NCBI GenBank assembly: GCA_028873925.1 | Contig: JAPPNA010000180.1 | Location: forward strand, 1 to 41,229 | Direction: 5' to 3' | DNA length: 41,229 nucleotides | Origin: Bacteroidota bacterium | GTDB taxonomy: Bacteria > Bacteroidota > Rhodothermia > Rhodothermales > Bin80 | Part shown: positions 12,942 through 33,437 of the stretch, one piece after another | Layout: every line of letters starts with the position of its first letter | Position numbering within the stretch: position 1 is the stretch's first letter | Notes under the pieces: model-generated | The model's input: the letters and a program-made list of their open reading frames with translations, nothing else | Database searches by the model: none | Told to the model about the DNA's origin: nothing | Made by a program: the position numbers and the translations under genes

Positions 12942-14099
12942 TCAAGCTGCCGACTCTACGCCCTTACTGAGAATCATCCAATAGGCATCATAAATGAACG
13001 CTTGATATCGCTTCTTGCCCGTAATCTCCCGGACAATGCCCAAATCCACCAGGTGCTGGATGGCTCTTCGCACCGTCGGAGGTGCAAGGCCGACCGTAGC
13101 AGCGGCAAGGGAAGCCGTAGCGATCGGACGCTCCTGCAGGAACCTGTGGACCCGTAGCGCCGACGATGCCGGCCGTCCGAGTTGCTTGATTTTTTCCCTG
13201 TCCGATTCAAAGAGGCCGAGAATCTTTCTGGCTGTGTCGGTTGCCTGGGTTGATGTGGTGGTCACTCCGTCCAGAAAGAACTCAAGCCAGGCCTCCCAAT
13301 CGCCATGAGTCCGAACGCGTTGCAGTAACTCATAGTAACGCGAGCGGTGAGTCTTGAAGTATAGACTCAAGTACAGCAGCGGCTGTTTCAGGACACCACT
13401 GATGCACAGGACGAGCGTGATCAGGAGTCTGCCAAGCCGACCATTTCCGTCAAGGAATGGGTGAATCGTCTCAAACTGAACGTGAACAAGCCCGGCTCTC
13501 ATCAGGGTCGGCAATTGCGGATCATCTGCATGGATAAACCGCTCAAGGTCGCTCATCAAATCCGCAACATTGCCGGGTGGAGGAGGCACAAACACCGCAT
13601 TCCCCGGGCGACTTCCGCCAATCCAGTTCTGAGAACGCCTGTATTCTCCGGGAGCCATATTACTTCCTCGCCCCTTGGAGAGCAGCACAGCGTGGATTTC
13701 CCGAATCAGACGCTGGCTGAGCGGGAATCCCCCGGCTATACGTTGCAGACCATGAGCCATGGCCGCGACATAGTTGGACACCTCAGTCACATCGTCCACC
13801 GGAACGCCCGGGCTGCCATCAACTTCATACAGAAGCAGGTCAGACAGTGAAGACTGCGTCCCTTCAATTTGTGACGATAAAACTGCTTCCTTCCGTATGT
13901 ACGTATACAGGAAGATGGGCGCATCCGGTAGAATTGAGGCTACTCCATCCAGCCGTCCGATGGCGAGATTGGCCCTTTCGATCCTACCCGCCAATTCATC
14001 CAATCGTACCGGTGGCGCTGGCGGAAGTGGAGGAGGTACATATGCCTCGGCTCTTTCTCCCGTGGTTGAGATCACGACTTTCCGCCCGATGCGCGACAT
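12942..14099 (-). CDS. Fic-domain protein with C-terminal winged helix
   Basis: A 385-residue protein. The Fic core motif HPFLDGNGRLGR is at residues 213-224, with the catalytic histidine first. The inhibitory helix motif SSQIEG is at about 75-80, so this is a class II Fic protein whose glutamate blocks the active site until released. Fic enzymes normally transfer AMP (or another nucleotide part) to hydroxyl side chains of target proteins. The C-terminal part (ALRVHRFLQERPIATASLAAATVGLAPPTVRRAIQHLVDLGIVREITG) is a winged helix-turn-helix, suggesting DNA binding and self-regulation. No antitoxin gene adjoins it, which fits self-inhibition. The region just upstream of its ATG carries three TAAAGAAC-type repeats that could be its operator. 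The function of the target is unknown. Confidence 0.93.
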   Translation of the reverse strand: MSRIGRKVVISTTGERAEAYVPPPLPPAPPVRLDELAGRIERANLAIGRLDGVASILPDAPIFLYTYIRKEAVLSSQIEGTQSSLSDLLLYEVDGSPGVPVDDVTEVSNYVAAMAHGLQRIAGGFPLSQRLIREIHAVLLSKGRGSNMAPGEYRRSQNWIGGSRPGNAVFVPPPPGNVADLMSDLERFIHADDPQLPTLMRAGLVHVQFETIHPFLDGNGRLGRLLITLVLCISGVLKQPLLYLSLYFKTHRSRYYELLQRVRTHGDWEAWLEFFLDGVTTTSTQATDTARKILGLFESDREKIKQLGRPASSALRVHRFLQERPIATASLAAATVGLAPPTVRRAIQHLVDLGIVREITGKKRYQAFIYDAYWMILSKGVESAA

Positions 14100-28686: not shown

Positions 28687-29083
28687 TGTACCCAGCGTGT
28701 TCAGCTACCGGAGGGGGATTTCCACGATGAACAGCCGCTGAATGGTAAACCGCTACCACGTCCAGCCCGGCTGCGACCCGAGCGGTCGGGTTCCTGTTCA
28801 CCTACGGATTCGGCCCCGTAATGCCCCAAAGTCACTCAATACCGCCATATGTAAACTGCTGACTCCGGCTAAGTCGTCAATTCCAGCTGCGCTTACCGTC
28901 CTCCGAGCACTTAGCCACCCAATTTGAATCAACACGCTCAACGCGATTCGGATGGCCTGCAGAAGATCTATCAGTAGATGTTTGAGCACGGGATGCAACG
29001 CGCAGGCCGCGGCTACGTCAAATGCTCATTTGGTCCATGCCTGCTGCTTTATTCCGGCATAGTTTGCGCCCGAATCGGATGGA
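28687..29083. other. Gap downstream of the reverse transcriptase, no clear gene
   Basis: This 397 bp stretch holds one minus-strand frame (28998-28798) with a hydrophobic N-terminal part (LKHLLIDLLQAIRIALSVLI), but no domain is recognisable. It lies just downstream of the reverse transcriptase gene and could be a small accessory gene or chance. No terminator was recognised. Confidence 0.35.
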
Positions 29084-30421
29084 TCAGTTGCCGACCTCGG
29101 AGCTTTGAATCCCAGAGCGGGCGTTAGGTGACAGTCGGGTTATTTCGCGCTTTAGCGCAGAGCAGTGGTTCCGCAGCTGTGCCTTGATAGCAGGCTCATC
29201 CATGCGATCGGCAGCTCGATTGGCATAGCCGACATAATTCCGCTTTCCGTAACAGGTGTAGCGCTCGTACAGTCGTCTCTTGGGCAAGGGCCTGTTGCCG
29301 CCCAGAGCATTCGATTTGGATGCCCGTCTTACGGCTCTTCGCATCCGGCGATTGAATCGTGTTGAGCTGGAGTCGCGGATCCGAATATGGTCGCCATCAA
29401 ACTGAAATCCCAAGTACTGGAACGGGCCGTTTTTGCCATCTAATCGCGTTAACTCACCGCTGCCATCATTCAGATGCCGGAATTGCGCCTTCTCGGTCTT
29501 CGCCTCATTGACCTTTAGTTTGTGCCGCTCCAGTTGATCGTTAACGGCATCTATAATCCGACAGGCATGTTCTGGTGGGCAAACGATCATGATATCGTCG
29601 CTATATCTCCGATACAGGCCATTAAATTCCCGGACGAGTTTTCCAATATGCTGATCAAATCGGATCATATAAGCGTTCGACAGCACGGGACTGATTGGCA
29701 GCCCTTGGGGTATGCCCTTTTGCTCCTTATTGCTTAGCAAGTAGCCCTCGCCTCGTATCCGTTGGCGGAACTCTTTGGCACTGATAATCTGCTGTCCACG
29801 CTGCTCCTCCCTTGGTCTAAGGTAGAAGTCCCTACATGCGGGGATCCGGCGCAGCCGGCGGTCAGTCACGAAGGAATAGGACGTTACGGACCGGAAGATT
29901 TTGAAATGGTCATCGGGCAGGCGCTGCAGTCCCAACAGATTCGTCCATCTTTCTTTCAAGATTTCATGATCAAGATTGTCAAAAAAGCCGCGCACATCCA
30001 TGGCTATGGCGCAACAGTCTTGCTGAGCACGGACGTACTCAAAGACTTCGTATGCAAAGTCAATGTTGCACTTCCCGTCGAGTGAACGATACGCAATGGG
30101 TACGTCTGAAATCTGCCATTCTTGAAGTGCCGAGTCATACAAGCCACCGATCAGCTTGGCATAGTACGAGTAGATGTGAGCGTCCAAATGGGCAGCCAGG
30201 AAGATGCTGCGCCGCTTGCGGCGTATTTCCCGCTTGTGCTGGTCTGCTGAGCCTTCTGTCCTCTTGTAGTGCGTGCTGACAATTGGCTGCTGTATAAAAG
30301 GAAAGAAGGCGTGCCGAGCGACTTGAGCAGGACAGGTAACTATCGGCTCAGCTTTCTTGCGTGACACTTCCCCGTCAAAATGGGGATAGCCGCGGTACCG
30401 ATACCAGCCTTCAGTCCCCAT
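29084..30421 (-). CDS. Stand-alone reverse transcriptase, DRT2/UG-like antiviral type
   Basis: A 445-residue RNA-directed DNA polymerase. ATG at 30421 gives the N-terminus MGTEGWYRYRGYPHFDGEV; the frame continues upstream only through the structured leader. RT core motifs: AMDVRGFFDNLDHEILKERW (motif A, first catalytic aspartate about residue 142), GIPQGLPISPVLSNAYM (motif B), YRRYSDDIMIV (motif C with the DD pair at 275-276), NEAKTEKAQF (D) and YLGFQFDGDHI (E). There is no maturase X, HNH or integrase domain, so it is not a group II intron protein, and no retron msr/msd pattern was found. The RGYPHFD start, AAHLDAHIYSYYAKL and CNIDFAYEVF fit my recollection of UG-type defence RTs, closest to DRT2. 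Other UG classes such as DRT9 remain possible. A strongly folded leader lies 35 bp upstream. Confidence 0.9.
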   Translation of the reverse strand: MGTEGWYRYRGYPHFDGEVSRKKAEPIVTCPAQVARHAFFPFIQQPIVSTHYKRTEGSADQHKREIRRKRRSIFLAAHLDAHIYSYYAKLIGGLYDSALQEWQISDVPIAYRSLDGKCNIDFAYEVFEYVRAQQDCCAIAMDVRGFFDNLDHEILKERWTNLLGLQRLPDDHFKIFRSVTSYSFVTDRRLRRIPACRDFYLRPREEQRGQQIISAKEFRQRIRGEGYLLSNKEQKGIPQGLPISPVLSNAYMIRFDQHIGKLVREFNGLYRRYSDDIMIVCPPEHACRIIDAVNDQLERHKLKVNEAKTEKAQFRHLNDGSGELTRLDGKNGPFQYLGFQFDGDHIRIRDSSSTRFNRRMRRAVRRASKSNALGGNRPLPKRRLYERYTCYGKRNYVGYANRAADRMDEPAIKAQLRNHCSALKREITRLSPNARSGIQSSEVGN

Positions 30422-30455
30422 CCCGGAATTCACTTGATTCACGAAGAGTTTAAGC

Positions 30456-30690
30456 CGGGGCACGAGACAGCGGGCATCTCGATTTGTGCCCCGACGCACA
30501 TCGGCTCGCGCCATCGTAATGAATTGCCCGAAAACGAGCAATTCATCCCGCTAAGAATAACTACAGTGAATCCATGAGGGTAATCATGCAATTCTTGGTG
30601 GCCTTGATAGGCTCCCTGCATGAGGAAGCGTTCTCAAGGAACACATACCCCTCAAGCCAAATGCTCAAGGCAAGCACTTGAATTGAGTGC
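30456..30690 (-). ncRNA. Structured leader RNA upstream of the reverse transcriptase
   Basis: Read on the minus strand, five hairpins follow each other. H1: GCACT/AGTGC (30690-30674). H2: CCTTGA/TCAAGG outside GCTTCCT/AGGGAGC (30639-30602). H3: AAGAAT/ATTCTT outside CATGA/TCATG (30596-30553). H4: ATGAATTGCTCG paired with CGGGCAATTCAT across a TTTT loop (30546-30519), 12 pairs with one G-U. H5: CGGGGCAC/GTGCCCCG outside GAGA/TCTC (30493-30456). The RT start codon follows 35 bases later. This is where DRT2 and DRT9 systems encode their template ncRNA, so I propose that this RNA is the template and partner of the RT. Ends and promoter are not defined by sequence. A rival view is a cis-regulatory leader controlling RT translation. 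Confidence 0.65.
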
Positions 30691-33304
<2,614 letters not shown>

Positions 33305-33437
33305 ATCGGGATACGGAGTGCTGCAATGCGGGTGGCCCCCCAGACGGGGTCCAGCCCGGTTGCCCGACCGGCTGCGTTCTGGAGCGCTGGACTAACGCGT
33401 GCTTATCGCAGCGTAATCTCATGATGTGCATGCTGGG

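What the first reader, a model, noticed from the sequence alone, without database searches (positions are those of the whole stretch)
29084..30690. DRT2-like reverse transcriptase with its own structured RNA
A stand-alone RT with a YSDD active site and without maturase or integrase parts is preceded by 235 nt that form five hairpins in a row, two of them long and near perfect (30546-30519 and 30493-30456). This is the layout of DRT2/DRT9 antiviral systems, in which the RT copies an upstream ncRNA into cDNA. The N-terminal RGYPHFD and IYSYYA motifs fit what I remember of the UG2 class, but I cannot run a search. If correct, it may be a divergent member in a Rhodothermia-like genome.
Basis: partly seen in the sequence, partly recalled or inferred. 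Interest (0 to 1): 0.82.

Follow-up and report, generated by a model that had tools for sequence, protein, structure and literature searches.

The report
Divergent DRT2 antiviral reverse-transcriptase system
This is a distant member of a known bacterial anti-virus system (DRT2), in which a reverse transcriptase is predicted to copy a short RNA over and over into a repetitive toxic gene; here the repeat is unusually short, its jump signal differs from the published one, and the usual promoter at the repeat joint is missing.

Summary
The gene at 30421-29084 (minus; ATG start at 30421, not the TTG at 30541) is a DRT2/UG2 reverse transcriptase: NCBI equivalog Drt2 457 bits (cut-off 390), 36% identical over its whole length to KpnDRT2 of known structure. 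The RNA before it (about 30670-30450) is a diverged DRT2 ncRNA. Rfam's DRT2-type family RT-12 misses it, but two covariance models built only from KpnDRT2-like RNAs find it, full length, as their only hit in 41 kb (27.7 bits, E 1e-5). It has the 5' handle, tower, buttress and a pseudoknot (GCGGG/CCCGC) whose pairs covary among homologues. The published ACA/ACA jump motif is TTC/TTC here. Across nine DRT2 lineages this trinucleotide differs, but its two copies always match at the same two positions (9/9; swapped control 15/72). The bounded 84-nt template is a multiple of three, with one stop-free frame, an SD and an ATG, predicting a 28-aa Neo repeat with a hydrophobic start. Unlike all eight homologues examined, no sigma70-like promoter forms at the repeat junction. 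DRT2 and katG interrupt a gene order conserved in relatives. Verdict: a real, new variant of a known kind. Its activity is inferred, not shown.

The parts
29084..30421 (-). DRT2 (UG2) reverse transcriptase, 445 aa, YSDD active site
   Evidence: NF041746 457 bits, PADLOC Drt2 482 bits, PDB 9c0i 36% identity, Foldseek best hit 9c0i E 1.8e-32
30450..30675 (-). predicted DRT2 ncRNA (about 220-230 nt; exact ends not determined)
   Evidence: fold z -4.3; covariance-model hits over 30558-30447
30650..30670 (-). 5' handle hairpin CCTTGAGC-ATTTG-GCTTGAGG
   Evidence: same place and spacing as the handle of KpnDRT2-like RNAs
30558..30641 (-). predicted 84-nt template (28 codons), from TTC-1 to just before TTC-2
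30639..30641 (-). jump motif copy 1 (TTC), position of ACA-1
30555..30557 (-). jump motif copy 2 (TTC), position of ACA-2, 6 nt before the pseudoknot
30547..30551 (-). pseudoknot 5' strand GCGGG
30520..30545 (-). tower hairpin TGAATTGCTCG-TTTT-CGGGCAATTCA
   Evidence: helix 1 of the covariation count
30503..30512 (-). buttress hairpin GGC-GCGA-GCC
   Evidence: helix 2
30454..30495 (-). 3' hairpin that presents the pseudoknot loop, with a 5-nt 5' bulge
   Evidence: helices 3 and 4
30470..30474 (-). pseudoknot 3' strand CCCGC, in the loop of the 3' hairpin
30558..30641 (+). neo repeat unit as read from the cDNA: NYSESMRVIMQFLVALIGSLHEEAFSRN, repeating
   Evidence: the only stop-free frame of the three
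30576..30579 (+). Shine-Dalgarno-like GAGG of neo
   Evidence: sequence; spacing as in KpnDRT2-like neo
30586..30588 (+). predicted neo start codon ATG (MQFLVALIGSL...)
28687..33437 (.). segment with DRT2 and katG between ispB and fecCD, which are neighbours in relatives

Best explanation
A complete DRT2 anti-phage system. The RT binds its upstream pseudoknotted ncRNA (inferred from conserved anatomy). On infection it copies the 84-nt stretch between the handle and the pseudoknot. On reaching the 5' TTC the cDNA end (GAA) re-pairs with the 3' TTC and the RT starts again, giving head-to-tail cDNA repeats (inferred from the matched motif). After second-strand synthesis the repeats form an endless frame with an SD and ATG in each unit, expressed as a Neo protein of 28-aa repeats that halts growth (inferred by homology to KpnDRT2). 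How this neo is transcribed is open: the usual sigma70-type junction promoter is absent.
For: RT identity. Models R1 and R2, built without the window, hit 30558-30447 full length, alone in 41 kb: 21.2 bits, E 0.0013 and 27.7 bits, E 1e-5. On the alignment that includes the window, 26 of 32 scaffold pairs show changes on both sides, 0/500 shuffles. Pseudoknot complementary in all 10 RNA types examined, with different sequences. Jump trinucleotide matches at the set positions in 9/9 lineages against 15/72 when 5' and 3' ends are swapped between lineages. In the window, motif + multiple of three + open frame occurs in 2.3% of dinucleotide shuffles, and with SD and ATG in 0.8%. Hydrophobic stretch at the Neo start, as in homologues; 1.3% of shuffles. 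KpnDRT2 mechanism: PMC12039810, PMC11100668.
Against: No sigma70-like promoter at the junction (7/12, shuffle p 0.81), against 10-12/12 in eight homologues; no Bacteroidota-type promoter (TTTG/TANNTTTG) either; no other boundary restores a good one. Rfam RT-12 does not hit. The repeat is shorter than the 111-129 nt published. No relative closer than 41% was found, so the window's own boundaries rest on one sequence. No expression or defence data.
Confidence: 0.72

Rival explanations
1. A DRT2 system that makes concatenated cDNA from this ncRNA, but whose neo is not switched on by the host's housekeeping promoter at the junction. It may use an alternative sigma factor or a phage RNA polymerase, or act through the cDNA itself.
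For: The junction promoter is absent here and present in all eight homologues tested. TATAAT is not enriched before genes of this genome (2 against 3.0 expected), while TTTG and TANNTTTG are. Wilkinson et al. predicted that some DRT2 might rebuild phage-specific promoters (PMC12039810).
Against: SD, ATG and the hydrophobic open frame are all kept, which suggests that Neo is still translated. Host promoters were sampled from about 0.5 Mb only (153 upstream regions).
Confidence: 0.17
2. A decayed DRT2: the RT is intact but the template no longer encodes a working effector.
For: Missing junction promoter and unusually short repeat.
Against: Intact RT with its catalytic motif, intact pseudoknot and scaffold with no broken pair in the R1 alignment, in-frame template with a matched jump motif.
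Confidence: 0.07
3. A different ncRNA-using RT, such as DRT9 (homopolymer) or DRT10 (short tandem repeat).
For: Same general layout of ncRNA plus a single RT gene.
Against: Drt2 482 bits against Drt9 60 bits; fold E 1.8e-32 for DRT2 against 4e-10 for DRT9; the scaffold matches the DRT2 RNA.
Confidence: 0.02
4. A non-defence RT: a group II intron maturase remnant, a DGR or a retron.
For: Weak shared RT core: group_II_RT_mat 76.6 bits, far below its cut-off of 300.
Against: Drt2 equivalog cut-off passed; no maturase, Cas1 or effector domain found by Pfam.
Confidence: 0.01

Closest known systems
KpnDRT2 of Klebsiella pneumoniae (PDB 9c0i; PMC12039810, PMC11100668)
   Same: RT fold and full-length homology; 5' handle, template, pseudoknot, tower and buttress in the same order; matched jump trinucleotides at the same two places; repeat divisible by three with one open frame, SD, ATG and a hydrophobic Neo start.
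   Different: RT only 36% identical and outside the KpnDRT2-like clade; TTC in place of ACA; 84-nt template in place of 120; no recognisable junction promoter; no duplex between linker and RNA 3' end seen by eye.
Rfam RT-12 RNA (RF03016)
   Same: RT-12 matches the scaffold of the KpnDRT2-like RNAs in L049, L024 and L019; the window has the same layout.
   Different: The window does not reach RT-12 even at E 1.
Rfam RT-13 RNA (RF03017), rhizobial DRT2
   Same: Stands before a DRT2 RT (L065, L066) and shows the same jump-motif and neo layout (GTT, 129 nt).
   Different: Different 3' hairpin; no hit in the window.
DRT2 on viral contig L022 (IMG/VR 2856844358)
   Same: Closest RT found (41%); similarly short template, 87-89 nt.
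   Different: Keeps a TTGACA/TATATT junction promoter; its exact jump motif is ambiguous (GTA gives 89 nt; a two-base GT match gives 87).

Membership tests
DRT2 (UG2) reverse transcriptase | passes the curated Drt2 profile and covers its whole length | tested here: met
   457 bits, cut-off 390, profile 1-416/416; PADLOC Drt2 482 bits
DRT2 (UG2) reverse transcriptase | YxDD active site and stand-alone RT without effector domain | tested here: met
   YSDD; only RVT_1 in Pfam
DRT2 (UG2) reverse transcriptase | DRT2 fold with long thumb | tested here: met
   AlphaFold2 model (pLDDT 73) has 9c0i as best hit, TM 0.70, next hit E 4e-10
DRT2 ncRNA | 5' handle, tower, buttress and pseudoknot in the RNA before the RT gene | tested here: met
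DRT2 ncRNA | two matching jump trinucleotides at the template ends | tested here: met
   TTC/TTC, offsets 8 and 6
DRT2 ncRNA, KpnDRT2 clade | the jump trinucleotide is ACA | tested here: not met
   TTC; also not ACA in eight of the nine lineages
DRT2 ncRNA, Rfam RT-12 | gathering score 44.2 | tested here: not met
   no match up to E 1 in 30400-30760, none in the whole genome up to E 10
DRT2 neo gene | template length divisible by three and one stop-free frame across junctions | tested here: met
   84 nt, one frame open, the other two closed
DRT2 neo gene | SD and start codon in each repeat | tested here: met
   GAGG, 6 nt, ATG in frame
DRT2 neo gene | sigma70-type promoter rebuilt at the repeat junction | tested here: not met
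   7/12, p 0.81; homologues 10-12/12
DRT2 system | rolling-circle reverse transcription and phage-triggered double-stranded repeats | not testable with these tools
   needs sequencing of cDNA
DRT2 system | protection against phage by growth arrest | not testable with these tools
   needs plaque and growth assays
DRT9 | best profile is Drt9 | tested here: not met
   Drt9 59.7 bits against Drt2 482.3

The most novel reading that the evidence does not exclude
A DRT2 subtype whose repetitive neo gene is hidden from the host's housekeeping promoter and is switched on in another way, for example by a phage or alternative-sigma RNA polymerase. More broadly, the jump motif of DRT2 RNAs is free to drift to any trinucleotide as long as both copies change together.
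Probability: 0.25. Interest if true: 0.68.

Novelty: new variant of a known kind. Interest (0 to 1): 0.5.

Why it matters
In the first DRT2 work, ncRNAs could be predicted for divergent clades but Neo was hard to annotate, and alternative mechanisms were suggested (PMC11100668). The paired-motif rule found here lets neo be read in several divergent systems. It also gives natural covariation evidence that the cDNA end jumps by base pairing, as a telomerase realigns. The missing promoter in this system makes the question of how neo is transcribed directly testable.

Tried and rejected
Rfam gave no hit in the window; controls showed that Rfam does hold DRT2-type RNAs, RT-12 and RT-13. Closer relatives were sought in 245 genomes of the class, 394 of the phylum, GTDB contigs (one pattern scan), viral contigs (six scans), plasmids and phages; none is above 41-42% identity. 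The same-order relative L015 (contig end, RT cut off) did not give a readable ncRNA by eye. L016 and L022 have a matched trinucleotide, but the template is 145 and 89 nt, not divisible by three; L022 fits with a two-base match (87 nt), L016 stays unexplained. Other jump boundaries in the window (GTA 84, GTT 81, TGT 78, GGG 102 nt) also keep the frame open, so TTC is preferred on position alone. A minus-strand R1 match in L023 (24.1 bits), an artefact of the palindromic hairpin, outscores the window's 21.2 bits; hence the second model and the pseudoknot test. A 15-nt direct repeat flanking DRT2+katG is absent from the relatives' empty sites and may be chance. DRT9, DRT10, DGR, retron and group II intron readings were rejected on profile scores and fold.

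Full report
Observation. The minus-strand ORF ending at 29084 encodes an RT with YSDD. Mechanical ORF calling extends it to a TTG at 30541, but homology to DRT2 starts at the ATG at 30421 (MGTEGWYRYRGYPHFD).

Identity of the RT. NCBIfam Drt2 equivalog 457.1 bits (cut-off 390) over the whole profile; PADLOC Drt2 482 bits against 60 for Drt9; PDB entries of KpnDRT2 at E about 1e-85 over the full length, 36% identity. An AlphaFold2 model (pLDDT 73, pTM 0.72) finds 9c0i first (E 1.8e-32, TM 0.70), the next hit being DRT9 at 4e-10. It is the only DRT2 in its genome. In a tree of 36 homologues the KpnDRT2-like clade (98/97) excludes the window, which joins other deep DRT2 lineages in an unresolved group. 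The best relative found, L022, is 41% identical.

The ncRNA. By eye the window has the parts of the KpnDRT2 RNA in the same order: 5' handle (30670-30650), template, pseudoknot strand GCGGG (30551-30547), tower (30545-30520), buttress (30512-30503), and a 3' hairpin (30495-30454) whose loop holds CCCGC (30474-30470). As an independent test, model R1 was built from seven KpnDRT2-like scaffolds without the window. It hits 30558-30447 over its full length, with no broken pair in the alignment, as the only match with E below 1 in 41 kb (21.2 bits, E 0.0013). Model R2, with L024 and L019 in place of L023 and again without the window, raises this to 27.7 bits, E 1e-5. On the alignment with the window, 92.9% of cells pair, 26 of 32 pairs change on both sides, and no shuffle of 500 reaches this; that alignment was fitted to the model, so it leans towards the structure. 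The pseudoknot, which the models do not contain, is complementary in all ten RNA types examined although its sequence differs (GCGGG/CCCGC, GCGGT/ACCGC, GCGGC/GCCGC, TGCGT/ACGCA, GGATT/AATCC and others). Rfam RT-12 recognises the KpnDRT2-like RNAs and RT-13 the rhizobial ones, but neither recognises the window. The helix that RT-12 forms between linker and RNA 3' end was not seen in the window by eye.

The jump motif. In KpnDRT2 two ACA triplets bound the template and guide the jump (PMC12039810, PMC11100668). The window has TTC at both places: 8 nt after the handle stem and 6 nt before the pseudoknot. The same rule was applied to one member of each of nine lineages (5' offset 6-9, 3' offset 5-7). 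All nine match themselves (ACA, AGA, GTT, GTT, TTA, AAG, TTC, GTA, CTG), whereas 5' and 3' ends swapped between lineages match in 15 of 72 cases. Caveat: handles and pseudoknots were placed by hand, and the offsets were set after several loci had been seen. Seven of the nine give a length divisible by three with an open frame.

The neo frame. The window's template is 84 nt, that is 28 codons. One frame is free of stops across junctions (NYSESMRVIMQFLVALIGSLHEEAFSRN); the other two have stops in every repeat. GAGG and, 6 nt on, ATG precede a hydrophobic stretch (MQFLVALIGSL), as in the homologous Neo frames (MSIVHLLVSLWSV, MNMITAILSVIIEL, MLDVSFIITFLLAQII). Motif, length, open frame, SD and ATG together occur in 0.8% of dinucleotide shuffles; as hydrophobic a stretch in 1.3% of shuffled open repeats.

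The missing promoter. Eight homologues rebuild TTGACA/TATAAT-like boxes (10-12 of 12 matches; 17 nt apart in six, 18 in L002, 19 in L022 with an 89-nt unit) exactly across the predicted junction, which also supports the predicted boundaries there. The window does not (7/12, p 0.81), and no other choice of boundary yields a convincing one. Upstream regions of this genome are not rich in TATAAT but are in TTTG and TANNTTTG, so a host-specific promoter is possible, yet that consensus is absent from the junction too. This is the main open point.

Context. In seven relatives of the same family, ispB and fecCD are neighbours (47-96 nt apart in six, 508 nt in one). In the window DRT2 and katG lie between them (28687-33437). 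No other defence gene adjoins the RT; flanking genes are housekeeping.

Shown and inferred. Shown: RT family, ncRNA homology, pseudoknot, paired motif, open frame, absent sigma70-like promoter, interrupted synteny. Inferred: RNA binding, rolling-circle copying, Neo translation, growth arrest and phage defence, all by homology to KpnDRT2.

Noticed in passing
L016, L019, L022, L003, L002, L030, L065, L066 upstream of drt2: In DRT2 RNAs outside the KpnDRT2-like clade the ACA jump motif is replaced by other trinucleotides whose two copies match.
   Followed up: partly
L065:1186-1320 and L066:1177-1305: Small antisense 'hypothetical protein' genes annotated before rhizobial drt2 lie at the predicted neo template, so neo may already be partly annotated there under another name.
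   Followed up: no
own genome G000:C31, locus L121:350-2953: A second defence RT, DRT1 type (Drt1a 773 bits), in the same genome.
   Followed up: partly
window 12942-14099 (-): Fic-domain protein matching the candidate defence family SoFic, 395 bits.
   Followed up: no
window 28760-28774 and 33349-33363: 15-nt direct repeat (14/15) in the intergenic regions on either side of the DRT2+katG segment; absent from relatives' empty sites, possibly chance.
   Followed up: partly
L016:1320-1470: Nitratidesulfovibrio DRT2 RNA: good scaffold, but the template by the motif rule is 145 nt and not in frame; unexplained.
   Followed up: partly
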